DNA from: Corallococcus macrosporus DSM 14697
GTDB taxonomy: Bacteria > Myxococcota > Myxococcia > Myxococcales > Myxococcaceae
Assembly: GCF_002305895.1 (NCBI RefSeq)
Contig: NZ_CP022203.1
Coordinates: 4,380,501-4,444,500, forward strand
Direction of reading: 5' to 3'
Length of the DNA stretch: 64,000 bases
The notes below the pieces were generated by a model that saw nothing but the letters and a program-made list of their open reading frames with translations, made no database searches and was not told where the DNA came from. Every line of letters begins with the position of its first letter. Position 1 is the first letter of the stretch. The translations under genes were made by a program, and so were the position numbers. This document shows, in pieces, positions 17,456-23,916 of this stretch.

Positions 17456-17632
17456 AGGTGGCACCCCGCCGCCGCACGGGGACTGCGGAGCTGAATCGAA
17501 GCCAGGATGTCGGATGAAAGGATTGCAGGGGTTTTGGCCTCTTACTTCTCGGACCATGCCGCGCGTGCTGGCATTCTCCAGAGAAGACCCGCCTTGCGCC
17601 ACACCCGCTGGCCTGACTGAAAGGACGTGTTC

Positions 17633-18541
17633 ATGCGTCTCCGCGCCTGTGCCGCACTTCTGCAGCTTCTCACATCCTGTGCTACGTCTGCGCCGAGCCC
17701 ACAAGGCCAAGCGCCCCGGAACCCGAGGGTCGCCAACCTCCACAGAGCGGCGACGCTGCCCTGGGCGGATGGGGGACGATGCGTGGTGCGTGAGGCGTCC
17801 AGCGAATGGGCCGTGCTCGTGGAGCGGTGCTATCACGCGCTCGACCACGACCGAGTCGAATTTCGGGATGTCACGGGACAATGCAGTGTCGCCTCGGTGG
17901 GGACCGCTGCGATTGGAGTGGGCGTCTGCATCCTGATTGCACCCGAGATCGTCGTTGGAGCTGTGATTGTCGCTGGCGCAGTCGTGGTGGCGGTCGCCAT
18001 CAAAGAGGAATTGGATGCGTATCGAAAGGCATCGCGTGAGCGTGCGACGCCCGAGACTCAGTCGCGGCCATTCGATGAGCAAGAGCGTTCGAAGCACCGA
18101 ACGCCCAAACCGGAGCCAGCAGGGCAGGATTGGTTTCCTCCCGGACCGACCGAACCACTGGACCGAGTGCGTCGTCCTGAGTGCAGGCCCGTCCCAGTGC
18201 CGCACGCGGGCAAGGATGATCCGCATAACGAGTGCGCCGACACGTTCCCTCCAAACCGATACCCCGGCATGGACGTGCTCGTAGGGGGCAAGCGCTTCGA
18301 TGCGTTGCAGGTCGGCGTGCATGCACTGTGGGAGATCAAGACCCACCAATTTGACACGTACAGTGACTTCCTCCAGGAGCAGGTGATCAGGGACCAGCTT
18401 AGGGAGTTTGAGGAAGACCGCGACATTGCGCGGGCCTGTGGATATCTCTTCGTCATCGGCGTGAGCACCAGCGCGCACAAGGCCGCACTGCTGGAGTTCG
18501 ACGACAGCTTTGATATCGTCGTCACTGGGTGCAACCGATGA
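17633..18541 (+). CDS. SitA-like polymorphic toxin lipoprotein with DUF6310-type C-terminus
   Basis: 302 residues. ATG at 17633 has AAGGA seven bases upstream; the GTG at 17627 is the alternative. The signal is lipoprotein-type (MRLRACAALLQLLTSCATSA). Then comes a conserved Cys-containing module (ATLPWADGGRCVV, VERCYHALD) and a hydrophobic span (EIVVGAVIVAGAVVVAVAIKEELDAY). The C-terminal 110 residues (RPVPVPHAGKDDPHNECAD, GMDVLVGGKRFDALQVG, WEIKTHQFDTYSDF) match the DUF6310 family as I recall it. The D...ExK-like arrangement (FDALQ, WEIKT) suggests a restriction-endonuclease fold, which is inference. Lipidated toxins followed by an immunity gene are the design of SitA proteins moved between cells by outer-membrane exchange. 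Its stop overlaps the next start by 4 bp (ATGA). Confidence 0.72.
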   Translation: MRLRACAALLQLLTSCATSAPSPQGQAPRNPRVANLHRAATLPWADGGRCVVREASSEWAVLVERCYHALDHDRVEFRDVTGQCSVASVGTAAIGVGVCILIAPEIVVGAVIVAGAVVVAVAIKEELDAYRKASRERATPETQSRPFDEQERSKHRTPKPEPAGQDWFPPGPTEPLDRVRRPECRPVPVPHAGKDDPHNECADTFPPNRYPGMDVLVGGKRFDALQVGVHALWEIKTHQFDTYSDFLQEQVIRDQLREFEEDRDIARACGYLFVIGVSTSAHKAALLEFDDSFDIVVTGCNR

Positions 18542-19293
18542 CCACTCGAAGCCGGCTCGTGCTGAACGTCTATGCGCCAGCGCTCATGAGCGACGATGGC
18601 CGCACGCTCGCTGCCATTGAAGGGATGGAGAGGGCGATCCCCGGACTGCGCTTGACATGGGAGGTCTCCAAAGAAGGGCGGTCCATTGCGCTACCCCAAC
18701 GGGACGTGTGGCTTGCCGAGGCAGCCGGACGTGGGGAGTTTCCTCTCGTTTGCAATGGTGACGAGCGCTTTCCGGTGATGATTTCAGGGCGGTGCCGACC
18801 CGCGAGTGCAAGTCCAGGTGGCCAGTCACAGCTTCAGGTGCATGCGAAGCTGCCGCAGGACCCAGCCATCGTCTTGGCAGCCGCAGATGTGCTGGAGCAC
18901 GTAGCGGAGGGGGTCCGCGCACAGTGGGGCCTCGCGGCCCCCTCACCCATATTGCAGGTTATCGCGGACCAAACGGGCCCGAAGCTGAATGGGCCTGAAA
19001 AGCCACCGCGGGGTCTGCCCGCCCTCAAGTTCCCAGAGGCAATCCCGGCGCCCGAGATTCCGCGTCACCTGGGATGGCTGAACTATTGGTCTGCCGCTGC
19101 CGCGAAGGCCATCGGATTTCCAGACCCGATCCGCGACACAGACCTGCTTTCACGGGCGCGTCGCACGGTGTCGGGTGGCTGGGTCGTGCAACTCTCGGAC
19201 GCGCCGCTCGACCTGGACAACCCCGTCCACTTGGACGCGCTCAAGCGGGCTTACGAGCGCTTTCCTGAGATCGGCGGGCGCTCCGCACCGTGA
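18538..19293 (+). CDS. DUF5953-type putative immunity protein
   Basis: 251 residues, no signal peptide, so cytosolic. The sequence (LVLNVYAPALMSDDGRTL, FPLVCNGDERFPV, HLGWLNYWSAAAAKAIGFP, GGWVVQLSDAPLDLDNPVHL) matches the DUF5953 family as I recall it, which accompanies DUF6310 genes in myxobacteria. The ATG at 18538 overlaps the toxin-like gene's stop; a GTG at 18529 is in frame but less likely. Tight coupling to a lipoprotein nuclease-like gene makes an immunity role the simplest reading. Function has not been shown, to my knowledge. Confidence 0.7.
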   Translation: MTTRSRLVLNVYAPALMSDDGRTLAAIEGMERAIPGLRLTWEVSKEGRSIALPQRDVWLAEAAGRGEFPLVCNGDERFPVMISGRCRPASASPGGQSQLQVHAKLPQDPAIVLAAADVLEHVAEGVRAQWGLAAPSPILQVIADQTGPKLNGPEKPPRGLPALKFPEAIPAPEIPRHLGWLNYWSAAAAKAIGFPDPIRDTDLLSRARRTVSGGWVVQLSDAPLDLDNPVHLDALKRAYERFPEIGGRSAP

Positions 19294-20046: not shown

Positions 20047-20215
20047 GCAGCCCTCCTTGAGTGAAGCGGGCAGCATATCCGCGTCGCTCGCATGCCCGGT
20101 GACCGACCAGGCGGACTTCTGACATGGGCGGGTCAAACCGGCACCCGGGTTCTCGCTCCAAGTTTCCACTGCCGTTGTGCGCGCGAACGATGGCTCGTGA
20201 GCACTTCATGGGCGG

Positions 20216-20231
20216 GCCTTCCCAGGAAGGC
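20216..20231. promoter_or_regulatory. 16-bp perfect palindrome upstream of oxoamine synthase operon
   Basis: GCCTTCC-CA-GGAAGGC lies 47 bp before the ATG at 20279 in the divergent promoter region between the glutathione transferase and the operon. Symmetry and position suit an operator for a dimeric repressor, but a 2-nt loop hairpin or chance in GC-rich DNA are alternatives. Confidence 0.35.
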
Positions 20232-20278
20232 GTGAATAGTCAGAACATGCTCGACGCGCGCTCTTGAAGGAGGCGTCG

Positions 20279-21493
20279 ATGGAAGAGAAGAACCGTTACC
20301 GCAACAGCGAGTCGATGATCGTCCACGGCAATCCGTCCTTCCAGGCGGCGAAGGAGGCGGGGCTGCTGGACCTGGCGGTGCACAACACCGGGCGCGGCAC
20401 GCTCGCGCTGAAGGACGGCCGCGAGTTCATCAACATGTGCTCGTGCTCCTACTTGGGCCTGGACGCCGAGCCGGAGGTGCTCCAGGGCGCCATCGACGTG
20501 CTCCAGCGCGAGCGCACCATGGACCTGGCCATCTCCCGGCTGCGCATCCGCCTGGCCATCCTGGACGAGCTCGAGGCGCGGCTGTCCGCGCTCTGGCGTT
20601 CGAAGGTCATCGTCACCACCACGGCGAGCTATGCGAGCGCGGGGCTGCTTCCGCTCATCGCCTCCGGCCACCTGCTGCCCGAGGGCCGCAAGCCCGTCCT
20701 GGTCTTCGACAAGTCGGCGCACTTCTCGATGAACCTCATCAAGCCCATCTGCGCGGATGAGACCGAGGTGCTGACGTCGCCGCACAATGATTTGGAGTTC
20801 CTGGAGGACGTCTGCCGCAAGCACGCGCGCGTGGCCTACGTGGCGGACGGCTTCTATTCGATGGGCGGCGCGGCGGTGGTGAAGGAGCTGCTCGCGCTCC
20901 AGGACCGCTACGGCCTCTTCCTGTACTTCGATGACTCCCACGCGCTCTCCGTCTACGGCGAGGCGGGAGAGGGCTTCGTCCGCTCCCTGGCGGGCGGCGA
21001 GCTGAGCCCGCGCACCATCATCATCGCGTCGCTGGGCAAGGGTTTCGGCACGGCGGGCGGCGCCGTGATGCTCGGGCCCCAGCAGCATGTGGACCTGGTG
21101 GGGCGCTTCGCGGGGCCCCTGGGCTGGTCCCAGAGCCTGTCCATCCCGGCCATCGGCGCTGGCATGGCCTCCGCGCGCATCCACGGCACGCCCGAGCTGG
21201 CGAAGCGACAGCAGGCCCTGCGCGCCAACATCCGCTTCTTCGACGAGCGCGTGCCCACCCGGACCTCGGGGGAGGACTTCCCCATCAAGGTCATCGACGT
21301 GGGGCCGGAGGAGGTCGCGGTGGAGCGCTCGCGGCGGCTGCTGGAGCGGGGCTTCTATTCATCGGCGGTGTTCTTCCCCATCGTCCCCAAGGGGCGCGCG
21401 GGGCTGCGCATCATGTTGCGGTCGAACCTGTCGCAAGCGGACGTGCAGCGCCTGTGCGACGCCGTGCGAGAGATCTCCGCGCCAACAGCCTGA
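20279..21493 (+). CDS. Alpha-oxoamine synthase family PLP enzyme (BioF/Kbl/CqsA-like)
   Basis: 404 residues, ATG at 20279 with AAGGAGG five bases upstream. Fold-type I PLP enzyme: FINMCSCSYLGLD (substrate entry), TTTASYASAG (cofactor ring region), DDSHALSVYGE (Asp and His for the pyridine ring) and Lys254 in SLGKGFGTAGG for the internal aldimine. The family condenses an acyl-CoA with an amino acid and loses CO2, giving an alpha-aminoketone. It is not a typical biotin BioF: no other bio genes are near. It leads an operon with CoA-ester enzymes, which may make or tailor its acyl donor. The product cannot be read from sequence. Confidence 0.88.
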   Translation: MEEKNRYRNSESMIVHGNPSFQAAKEAGLLDLAVHNTGRGTLALKDGREFINMCSCSYLGLDAEPEVLQGAIDVLQRERTMDLAISRLRIRLAILDELEARLSALWRSKVIVTTTASYASAGLLPLIASGHLLPEGRKPVLVFDKSAHFSMNLIKPICADETEVLTSPHNDLEFLEDVCRKHARVAYVADGFYSMGGAAVVKELLALQDRYGLFLYFDDSHALSVYGEAGEGFVRSLAGGELSPRTIIIASLGKGFGTAGGAVMLGPQQHVDLVGRFAGPLGWSQSLSIPAIGAGMASARIHGTPELAKRQQALRANIRFFDERVPTRTSGEDFPIKVIDVGPEEVAVERSRRLLERGFYSSAVFFPIVPKGRAGLRIMLRSNLSQADVQRLCDAVREISAPTA

Positions 21494-21510
21494 GCGGGGG
21501 AGGTGGCGTC

Positions 21511-22404
21511 ATGCCGTTGTCCATTGCTTGCAGGTCCATGCTGGTGACCCCCGCCCTGGAGCCGTCGCGCTTCGACAAGGCCTCTGAAGTGGGCGCGGAC
21601 GTGGGGCTGCTCGACCTGGAGGATGGCGTGCCCCGGGCCTTCAAGCCCGAGGCGCGCCGGCTGGCCACCGAGCACCTGGCGCGGGGCCGCGCGTCGCGCC
21701 CCATGGCGCTGCGAATCAACAGCCTTCGCACCGAGGACGGACTCCGCGACGTGCTGGCCCTGCTGGACAGAGGAGCCCGGCCCGACCTCGTGCTGCTCCC
21801 CAAGGTGGAGTCGCCCGCGGAGCTGCAGCAGCTTGACGCGCTGCTGAGCCCCCGGCTCCCGGACGTGGCGCTGCTGGCCATCATCGAGACGTCACGGGGT
21901 GTGGCCGCGGTGGATGCCATCGCCACCGCCACGCCGAGGCTCCAGGGGCTGATTTTCGGAGCGGCCGACCTGTCCGCGGAGCTGGGCATCCCGCTGACGT
22001 GGGAGCCCATGCTGTACGCGCGCTCGCGCATCGCCATGGCGGCGGGGGCGGCGGGGCTGTCCGCCATTGACTCGCCCTGCTTCGACATGGAGGACCTGGA
22101 CGCGGTGGAGGAGGAGACGCGCCGGGCCCGCGCGCTGGGCTTCGTGGGGAAGATCGTCATCCATCCGCAGCAGGTGGCCGCCGTCCACCGGGCGCTGCGT
22201 CCGTGTCCGCGCACGGTGGACCACGCGCGCCGCGTGGTGGCGCAGGCGGAGGATGACGGGCTGGGCGGCATCCGCCGGCTGGGCGGCGCCATGGTGGGGC
22301 CTCCGCTGGTGGCGGCGGCGCGGCGCGTGCTGGCCAACGAGCACCTGATGGAGGAGCTGGAGTCCGCGCCCAGGCGGCAGGGCGCCAGGACGGGAGACAC
22401 ATGA
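21511..22404 (+). CDS. HpcH/HpaI/CitE family CoA-ester lyase
   Basis: 297 residues, ATG at 21511 after GGGGGAGG. It shows the TIM-barrel landmarks of the CitE/malyl-CoA lyase group: LLDLEDGVP (Glu and Asp metal ligands), ALRINS, LLPKVESP, LAIIETSRG, FGAADLSAELG and GKIVIHPQQV. These enzymes cleave or form malyl-CoA, beta-methylmalyl-CoA or citramalyl-CoA bonds with Mg2+. It lies 17 bp after the oxoamine synthase and overlaps the MaoC gene by 4 bp. Exact substrate unknown; partner hydratase suggests beta-methylmalyl-CoA-like chemistry. Confidence 0.87.
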   Translation: MPLSIACRSMLVTPALEPSRFDKASEVGADVGLLDLEDGVPRAFKPEARRLATEHLARGRASRPMALRINSLRTEDGLRDVLALLDRGARPDLVLLPKVESPAELQQLDALLSPRLPDVALLAIIETSRGVAAVDAIATATPRLQGLIFGAADLSAELGIPLTWEPMLYARSRIAMAAGAAGLSAIDSPCFDMEDLDAVEEETRRARALGFVGKIVIHPQQVAAVHRALRPCPRTVDHARRVVAQAEDDGLGGIRRLGGAMVGPPLVAAARRVLANEHLMEELESAPRRQGARTGDT

Positions 22405-22928
22405 AGAAGATGGTCACCGCCCACAAGAAGGTGGGCAAGCAGCGCTACCGCGAGACACACGGCCTCTACTTCGAGGACTTCGAGGTGGGCGACGTCTTCG
22501 AGCACCGGCCCGGCCGCACGCTCACCGACGTGGACAACATGTGGCAGTCCCTGCTGTGCCTCAACACGCACCCGCTCCACATCGACGCGGTGTACGCCAG
22601 CAAGACGGAGTGGAAGAAGCCGCTGATGTCCAGCCTGGTGACGCTGGCCATCGTCGGCGGCATGAGCCTCAACAGCACCAGCGCCAAGGGCGTGGCCAAC
22701 CTCGGTTGGGACAAGGTCCGGCTCACGGCGCCCGTCTTCGTGGGGGACACCATCTACGCGGAGAGCCGCGTGCTGGACAAGCGCATGTCACGCTCGCGCC
22801 GCACCCAGGGCATCGTCTCCGTGGAGACGAAGGGCGTGAAGGCGGACGGCACGGTGTTCATGACCTTCGAGCGCTCGTTCCTGGTGCCGCTCAAGAAGCA
22901 CAGCGTGGACGTGGATGCGAATTATTGA
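22401..22928 (+). CDS. MaoC-like (hot-dog fold) hydratase/dehydratase
   Basis: 175 residues starting in an ATGA overlap with the lyase. YFEDFEVGDVFEHRPGRTLT is the classic MaoC opening, followed by LNTHPLHID, which holds the Asn/His-type catalytic loop of R-hydratases, and LTLAIVGGM- and FVGDTIY-like strands. MaoC proteins hydrate enoyl-CoA; next to a CitE-type lyase the family includes mesaconyl-CoA hydratases. Here the pairing may make or break a branched hydroxyacyl-CoA. Cytosolic. Confidence 0.87.
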   Translation: MKKMVTAHKKVGKQRYRETHGLYFEDFEVGDVFEHRPGRTLTDVDNMWQSLLCLNTHPLHIDAVYASKTEWKKPLMSSLVTLAIVGGMSLNSTSAKGVANLGWDKVRLTAPVFVGDTIYAESRVLDKRMSRSRRTQGIVSVETKGVKADGTVFMTFERSFLVPLKKHSVDVDANY

Positions 22929-22935
22929 AGCGCCG

Positions 22936-23916
22936 ATGCGGGCAATCACACAGGACGGGCCGGGTGGGCCGGAGGTGCTGCGCCTGTGCGAGCTGCCTCG
23001 GCCGGTGCCGGGTCCGCGCCAGCTCCGCGTCCGGGTGCGCGCCTCCGCGCTCAACCGGGGAGACCTCCTCCAGCGCAGCGGGCGCTACCCGCTGCCCCCC
23101 GATGTGGCCAGCCCGCTGATTGGCGTGGAGGTGGCGGGAGAGGTGGAGGCTATCGGCGCGGAGGTGCGCGGCTTCCAGCCAGGACAGCGCGTCTTCGGGC
23201 TGGTGGACGGCGGGGGCTACGCGGAGGCGTGCCTGATGGAGGAGGGGATGGCCATTCCGATGCCGCCGGGCTGGAGCTTCGTGAACGCCGCGGCGGTTCC
23301 AGAGGCCTTCTTCACCGCGCACGAGGCGTTGGTGGAGCTGGGCGGCCTGCGCGCGGGCCAGTCCATCCTCATCCACGCCGGGGGCAGCGGCGTGGGCACC
23401 GCGTGCATCCAGGTGGCGCGCGCGGTGGGCGCGCGGGTGTTCTTCACCGTGAGCACCGAGGAGAAGCTGCGCCGCTGCCTGGCGCTGGGCGCCGAGGCGG
23501 GCGTGCTGCGGACCGGGCAGGACTTCGCGCAAGAGGTCCCCCGCCTCACCCAGGGCGCGGGCGTGGACGTGGTGGCGGACTTCGTGGGCGGCGCCGCCCT
23601 GGCCCGCAACCTGTCCGTGTTGAAGTTCGGCGGCAGCCTGTTGCTGCTGGGCGTGCTGGACGGCATGGAGGGCGCGCTGGACGTGCGCCAGGTCATCCTG
23701 CGCCGGCTCCAGCTTCGCGGCATGTCGCTGCGTCCGCTGCCCCTGGAGGAGAAGGTGGCCGTCACCCGCCGCTTCCGCGAGCGGTGGTTGCCGGAGCTGG
23801 CGGTGGGGCGGGTGCGGCCCGTCATCGACTCCACCTTCCCGCTGGAGCGCGTGGCGGACGCGCACCGGCGCATGGAGTCCAACGCCAGCTTCGGGAAGCT
23901 CGTCCTGGAGCTGTAG
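22936..23916 (+). CDS. MDR-family NAD(P)H:quinone oxidoreductase / enoyl reductase-like (PIG3-type)
   Basis: 326 residues from the ATG at 22936; an ATG at 22915 inside the end of the MaoC gene is equally open and would give 333. No good ribosome site marks either, which fits translational coupling. Zinc-less medium-chain dehydrogenase: ALNRGDLLQRSGRYP, GVEVAGEVEAIG, AAAVPEAFFTAHEAL and the nucleotide motif IHAGGSGVGTACIQVA. It resembles PIG3/QorA. As the last gene of the operon it could reduce an enone made by the upstream enzymes. Confidence 0.87.
   Translation: MRAITQDGPGGPEVLRLCELPRPVPGPRQLRVRVRASALNRGDLLQRSGRYPLPPDVASPLIGVEVAGEVEAIGAEVRGFQPGQRVFGLVDGGGYAEACLMEEGMAIPMPPGWSFVNAAAVPEAFFTAHEALVELGGLRAGQSILIHAGGSGVGTACIQVARAVGARVFFTVSTEEKLRRCLALGAEAGVLRTGQDFAQEVPRLTQGAGVDVVADFVGGAALARNLSVLKFGGSLLLLGVLDGMEGALDVRQVILRRLQLRGMSLRPLPLEEKVAVTRRFRERWLPELAVGRVRPVIDSTFPLERVADAHRRMESNASFGKLVLEL

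What the first reader, a model, noticed from the sequence alone, without database searches (positions are those of the whole stretch)
20216..23916. Four-gene oxoamine synthase / CitE-like lyase / MaoC / MDR operon: possible new small-molecule or signal pathway
A BioF/Kbl/CqsA-type synthase with no biotin genes is tightly linked to a CoA-ester lyase, a hydratase and an enoyl-reductase-like enzyme. Three CoA/enone enzymes with an alpha-oxoamine synthase suggest a dedicated acyl donor and a reduced aminoketone product, comparable in logic to CqsA-made autoinducers. A palindrome sits before the operon.
Basis: inference. Interest (0 to 1): 0.65.

Follow-up and report, generated by a model that had tools for sequence, protein, structure and literature searches.

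The report
Ketomethylene pseudodipeptide operon in Myxococcus
Four adjacent genes in a Myxococcus genome match the core enzymes that make ketomemicin-type "fake peptide bonds" (protease-inhibitor-like compounds); close relatives carry the same four genes directly behind a peptide-making megaenzyme, which this strain lacks while keeping the four genes intact.

Summary
AOS (20279-21493), CitE-like (21511-22404), MaoC (22401-22928) and MDR (22915-23916) form a tight operon. The four proteins belong to the same families as KtmB, KtmA, KtmC and KtmF of the ketomemicin pathway: Streptomyces locus L178 carries the published ktmA-F gene set in published order, and its AOS, CitE and MaoC are 51, 41 and 57% identical to the window's.
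Inferred pathway: 2-oxo acid + acetyl/malonyl-CoA give a 2-substituted malyl-CoA; dehydration and reduction give a 2-substituted succinyl-CoA; condensation with an amino acid gives a ketomethylene pseudodipeptide.
AOS+CitE+MaoC are linked in 82 of 102 loci, over four phyla. In 18 of 21 close relatives an NRPS ending T-C, without thioesterase, lies immediately upstream, apparently replacing the ATP-grasp ligase KtmD: its C domain could put the peptide on the pseudodipeptide's amine. The window's clade lacks that NRPS, and no KtmD or KtmE was found, yet the four genes are under purifying selection. The palindrome looks incidental.
Verdict: new variant of a known kind; product unproven.

The parts
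20118..20278 (+).
   Evidence: About 95% identical among the window, L009 and L099; homology of the clade begins at 20118
20279..21493 (+). Alpha-oxoamine synthase, KtmB-like; proposed decarboxylative condensation of a 2-substituted succinyl-CoA with an amino acid
   Evidence: NCBIfam NF005697/PRK07505 517 bits; PDB 8xha (Alb29) E 1.9e-91; clade 100/100 apart from Kbl/BioF; catalytic His, DDSH and Lys present
21511..22404 (+). CitE/HpcH-like aldolase or lyase, KtmA-like; proposed joining of a 2-oxo acid with acetyl/malonyl-CoA
   Evidence: HpcH_HpaI E 1.6e-34; best solved relative 3qll E 6.9e-65; RipC_Ccl 259 bits, below the 375 cut-off; catalytic Arg, Glu and Asp motifs aligned
22401..22928 (+). 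MaoC-type hydratase/dehydratase, KtmC-like; proposed dehydration of the 2-substituted malyl-CoA
   Evidence: MC_hydratase E 4e-22; RipB_Ich 252 bits, below the 340 cut-off; beta-methylmalyl-CoA dehydratase 8hgn E 1.2e-24
22915..23916 (+). MDR enoyl reductase-like protein (PIG3 family), KtmF-like; proposed reduction of the enoyl-CoA; start may be 22936
   Evidence: TIGR02824 354 bits, cut-off 297; ADH_zinc_N E 4.6e-24; GxGxxG-type nucleotide motif in sequence

Best explanation
The operon makes a ketomethylene (carbonylmethylene) pseudodipeptide: a delta-amino-gamma-keto acid in which one peptide bond is replaced by CO-CH2. Proposed steps: (1) the CitE-like protein joins acetyl- or malonyl-CoA to a 2-oxo acid such as phenylpyruvate, giving a 2-substituted malyl-CoA; (2) the MaoC protein removes water; (3) the MDR protein reduces the double bond to a 2-substituted succinyl-CoA; (4) the AOS condenses it, with loss of CO2, with an amino acid. 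In most relatives the amine of this unit is then probably acylated by the terminal condensation domain of the adjacent NRPS. In the window's clade that NRPS is absent, so the likely end product is the free pseudodipeptide, comparable to arphamenine. Shown: families, operon, linkage, NRPS architecture, selection. Inferred: reaction direction, substrates, product, and its role (probably protease or aminopeptidase inhibition).
For: Same families as KtmB, A, C, F; Streptomyces loci with the full ktmA-F gene set and order: CitE-AOS-MaoC-ATP-grasp (PGM1, E 7e-104)-amidinotransferase (GATM, E 4e-47)-MDR against the published set; linkage of AOS+CitE+MaoC in 82 of 102 loci, 75 also with an MDR or OCD-type reductase; relatives of CitE and MaoC act on exactly this substrate class (citramalyl-CoA/itaconyl-CoA); actinomycete L163 has AOS-CitE-MaoC in the window's order followed by an ATP-grasp gene; purifying selection on all four, dN/dS 0.03-0.21; M28 or M24 aminopeptidase genes in several related clusters, as expected for peptidase inhibitors.
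Against: No biochemistry. KtmD- and KtmE-like genes are absent from the operon. CitE and MDR are only moderately similar to the ktm-type proteins (41% and 32%). Direction of the CitE reaction is assumed. The ktm-type reference loci were recognised by gene content, not by named Ktm sequences.
Confidence: 0.78

Rival explanations
1. The operon supplies the ketomethylene building block in trans to an NRPS elsewhere in the genome, so the final product is a larger peptide.
For: 18 of 21 relatives examined have an NRPS with a terminal C domain directly upstream; the genome has many NRPS modules.
Against: The dedicated NRPS has no ortholog in the window's genome, G077 or G074 (best 46% or so identity against 100% for its owner G061). 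Of 11 NRPS stretches inspected, the one T-C end (L192) corresponds to the interior of a longer reading frame in G077. Not exhaustive.
Confidence: 0.12
2. Itaconate/C5-dicarboxylate degradation (RipABC-like), with the AOS a bystander.
For: CitE and MaoC are closest to RipC/Ccl and RipB/Ich among named families.
Against: Both score well below the equivalog cut-offs (259 against 375; 252 against 340); no CoA-transferase beside the operon; the pair travels with AOS across phyla.
Confidence: 0.02
3. A CqsA-like synthase making an alpha-hydroxyketone or aminoketone autoinducer.
For: Same PLP superfamily.
Against: CqsA-type model 73 bits against 428; CqsA systems do not need an aldolase and dehydratase (own knowledge); no sensor kinase in the operon.
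Confidence: 0.02
4. An Alb29-type synthase condensing L-glutamate with short acyl-CoAs, the other genes being incidental.
For: Alb29 is the best solved relative.
Against: Alb29 groups with another subclade (100/100) whose loci lack CitE and MaoC.
Confidence: 0.04
5. A decaying remnant of an NRPS cluster with no present function.
For: The adjacent NRPS is missing in this clade.
Against: All four frames intact in three species; dN/dS 0.03-0.21, no higher than neighbouring genes (0.11-0.23); leader about 95% identical.
Confidence: 0.02

Closest known systems
Ketomemicin biosynthesis (ktmA-F; Streptomyces mobaraensis, Micromonospora, Salinispora)
   Same: Aldolase, PLP C-acyltransferase, dehydratase and MDR dehydrogenase of the same families, clustered; same chemical logic
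   Different: No ATP-grasp ligase (ktmD) or amidinotransferase (ktmE); gene order B-A-C-F instead of A-B-C-D-E-F; in relatives an NRPS with a terminal C domain stands where the ligase function is needed
Arphamenine A/B (Chromobacterium violaceum)
   Same: A free ketomethylene pseudodipeptide would be the expected type of product
   Different: I found no arphamenine genes in the papers searched, so homology could not be tested
Alb29 (albogrisin pathway, PDB 8xha)
   Same: Same AOS superclade, best solved relative
   Different: Different subclade; loci of that subclade lack CitE and MaoC
RipB/RipC (Ich/Ccl) itaconate degradation
   Same: Closest named relatives of the MaoC and CitE proteins; same substrate class
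   Different: Below both equivalog cut-offs; linked to AOS and a reductase, not to a CoA-transferase; proposed to run in the synthetic direction

Membership tests
ketomemicin (ktm) gene cluster | KtmA, B, C, F-type proteins clustered | tested here: met
   AOS 51%, CitE 41%, MaoC 57% identical to the ktm-type Streptomyces locus L178; MDR same family, 32%
ketomemicin (ktm) gene cluster | ATP-grasp peptide ligase (ktmD) | tested here: not met
   None in the operon; no PGM1-like match in the whole genome with the L178 protein (that run had no positive control, the query itself is sound)
ketomemicin (ktm) gene cluster | Amidinotransferase (ktmE) | tested here: not met
   None in the operon or its immediate flanks; the rest of the genome was not searched
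ketomemicin (ktm) gene cluster | Ketomethylene product | not testable with these tools
   Needs enzyme assay or metabolomics
CqsA-type autoinducer synthase | Scores above the curated model cut-off | tested here: not met
   NF005526 73 bits against 428
Kbl or BioF | Scores above the curated cut-off; groups with them in a tree | tested here: not met
   122 against 493 and 146 against 426; separate clade, 100/100
itaconate degradation RipABC | RipB and RipC above cut-off, plus RipA CoA-transferase | tested here: not met
   252 against 340 and 259 against 375; no CoA-transferase among the neighbouring genes; the genome was not searched for RipA

The most novel reading that the evidence does not exclude
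Myxobacteria and some Gammaproteobacteria make a class of NRPS-ketomethylene hybrids not found in the papers searched: an assembly line without a thioesterase is released by its C-terminal condensation domain onto the free amine of a pseudodipeptide made by the AOS-CitE-MaoC-MDR cassette. The window's clade has lost the NRPS and kept the pseudodipeptide as a stand-alone, selected product.
Probability: 0.5. Interest if true: 0.68.

Novelty: new variant of a known kind. Interest (0 to 1): 0.5.

Why it matters
PMC11943689 (2025) calls ketomemicins and arphamenines the only known natural ketomethylene pseudopeptides and reports ktm homologues only from Actinomycetota. The survey here finds the same AOS-aldolase-dehydratase(-reductase) core in Myxococcota, Pseudomonadota and Acidobacteriota, in several architectures, including one in which an NRPS terminal C domain seems to replace the ATP-grasp ligase. 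That points to a large, unread set of candidate protease inhibitors (some clusters also carry M28 or M24 aminopeptidase genes) and to an NRPS release route that can be tested directly. Whether the NRPS version has been described in subscription journals could not be checked.

Tried and rejected
Palindrome as operator: broken in L099, folds no better than shuffles. Kbl/BioF/SPT/ALAS/CqsA identity of the AOS: rejected on model scores and tree. Itaconate degradation: below cut-offs, no CoA-transferase nearby. Trans-acting NRPS: the one T-C end found (L192) corresponds to the interior of a longer reading frame in G077. Decay: rejected on dN/dS. Searching papers for the PDB codes of the closest structures gave only the Alb29 mention. 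No paper linking ketomethylene to an NRPS of this type was found. The home-made gene caller missed some genes, so linkage counts rest on tblastn with known proteins, not on that caller. No structure prediction was run, since matches to solved structures were already strong.

Full report
OBSERVATION. The window lies at 4,380,501-4,444,500 of an 8.97-Mb single-contig genome; the nearest named relative is Myxococcus vastator (94% identical AOS). The flanks are unrelated: a GST-like gene on the minus strand to the left and a formylglycine-generating-enzyme-like gene on the minus strand to the right.

WHAT THE PROTEINS ARE. The synthase matches the PRK07505 subfamily (517 bits, cut-off 342) and is far below the cut-offs for BioF (146/426), Kbl (122/493), ALAS (83/339), SPT and the CqsA-type model (73/428). 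Its best solved relatives are four chains at E about 1e-91; one of them, 8xha, is named as Alb29 of the albogrisin pathway in PMC11906848. A tree of 61 synthases puts it with 56 others in one clade (100/100) apart from E. coli Kbl and BioF and the genome's own BioF and SPT-like paralogue; long branches separate the outgroups, but the model scores agree. Catalytic His, DDSH and Lys are present. The CitE protein is closest to RipC/Ccl (PDB 3qll, E 7e-65), the MaoC protein to RipB/Ich and mesaconyl-CoA hydratases, both below the equivalog cut-offs. The MDR protein is in the PIG3 quinone-oxidoreductase family.

CONSERVATION. A genome-collection scan gave 46 loci; family, genus and class searches gave more. 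Of 102 loci examined with tblastn, 82 have CitE and MaoC within 6 kb of the AOS, and 75 of these also have an MDR or an ornithine-cyclodeaminase/mu-crystallin-type reductase. The group spans Myxococcota, Actinomycetota, Pseudomonadota and Acidobacteriota. The loci are not a random sample (chosen by AOS similarity, some close kin or the same genome twice), but the own genome holds only one other, much weaker RipB-type MaoC match, so chance adjacency is not a credible reading. The exceptions are informative: the loci that group with Alb29 in the tree lack CitE and MaoC.

LINK TO KETOMEMICIN. PMC11943689 lists the ktm cluster as aldolase A, PLP C-acyltransferase B, dehydratase C, ATP-grasp ligase D, amidinotransferase E, dehydrogenase F. 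Streptomyces loci L178 and L141 carry CitE, AOS, MaoC, an ATP-grasp protein (PreAtp-grasp + PGM1_C domains; L178 E 7e-104 to PGM1), an amidinotransferase (L178 E 4e-47 to glycine amidinotransferase) and MDR, in that order. The products of these strains are not known to me, so they are ktm-type by gene content. The window's proteins belong to the same families as positions B, A, C and F. In actinomycete L163 the order is that of the window, AOS-CitE-MaoC, followed by an ATP-grasp gene.

MECHANISM (inferred). The closest named enzymes act on citramalyl-CoA/itaconyl-CoA, that is, on a 2-substituted malyl-CoA and its dehydration product. Run in the synthetic direction: 2-oxo acid + acetyl/malonyl-CoA (CitE), dehydration (MaoC), reduction (MDR), giving a 2-substituted succinyl-CoA, then decarboxylative condensation with an amino acid (AOS), as ALAS does with succinyl-CoA and glycine. 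The product is a ketomethylene dipeptide isostere. From memory, Kawata et al. 2017 (Angew. Chem.; cited in the papers, not readable here) showed this route for ketomemicin with malonyl-CoA and phenylpyruvate.

NRPS COUPLING IN RELATIVES. In 18 of 21 genomes examined with the window-type operon, an NRPS gene on the same strand ends just before the AOS, within about 80 bases. Where domains were checked its last domains are T-C and the gene then stops: Pfam Condensation at the C-terminus, with the HHxxxDG motif intact in all 13 myxobacterial genes inspected. The same ending is found in the marine gammaproteobacterium L021 and in NRPS genes near a second myxobacterial cluster type (L107, L185, L026). 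A terminal C domain without a thioesterase suits release onto a free amine, here the aminoketo acid's, in place of KtmD. This is inference from architecture.

THE WINDOW'S CLADE. The window, L009 and L099 lack this NRPS. The best NRPS match in the genome is 46% identical over the module, and the NRPS ends inspected give no convincing in-trans candidate, though the check was not exhaustive. A PGM1-like ligase was also not found (no positive control in that run). Yet all four genes are intact, with dN/dS of 0.03-0.21 against clade-mates, no higher than neighbouring genes (0.11-0.23), and the 160-bp leader is about 95% identical. DNA similarity with NRPS-bearing relatives starts at about the AOS start codon and in most ends at the MDR stop, so the four genes behave as one unit. 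The most economical reading is loss of the NRPS with retention of a functional core that makes a free pseudodipeptide.

COMPARISON. It works like the ktm core; it is not a ktm cluster, since ktmD was tested and not found and ktmE is absent from the operon and its neighbours. It is not CqsA, Kbl, BioF or an itaconate pathway.

Noticed in passing
window 17627-18541 and 18529-19293: A DUF6310 protein followed by an overlapping DUF5953 protein; looks like a toxin-immunity-type pair in a fast-changing left flank (79% DNA identity to M. vastator, not matched in the L099 stretch held).
   Followed up: partly
L026, L032, L034, L040, L044, L045, L105, L107, L108: A second myxobacterial cluster type, CitE-AOS-MaoC-MDR with a class III aminotransferase, a ketosynthase and an NRPS; in L107, L185 and L026 the NRPS end is T-C. 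AOS about 50% identical to the window's.
   Followed up: partly
L028, L035, L043, L050 (Dyella): NRPS-CitE-ADI/amidinotransferase-fold protein-AOS-MaoC-MDR: a ktm-like set with an NRPS in place of the ATP-grasp ligase; the L050 NRPS ends with a C domain lacking the usual motif and an A-domain remnant.
   Followed up: partly
L029, L031, L033, L036-L039, L042, L046, L047, L051, L052: In Pseudomonas, Duganella/Massilia, Rheinheimera, Xenorhabdus and Erwinia an ornithine-cyclodeaminase/mu-crystallin-type protein stands where the MDR is; it may be an alternative reductase. Duganella-type and Rheinheimera loci add an EamA transporter and an M28 peptidase.
   Followed up: no
L143-L149, L151, L153, L155, L156, L159, L164, L179, L182 (Streptomyces): Several other AOS-CitE-MaoC-OCD cluster types with isopropylmalate-synthase-like or DmpF/DmpG-like genes and, in many, an M24 aminopeptidase P; products unknown.
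   Followed up: no
L163:7130-11807: Actinomycete cluster with AOS-CitE-MaoC in the window's order, then an ATP-grasp_4 ligase and a methyltransferase; AOS 55% and MaoC 65% identical to the window's.
   Followed up: partly
L017, L104 (Citreicoccus inhibens): A second, 64% identical AOS with only an MDR partner and no CitE or MaoC beside it.
   Followed up: no
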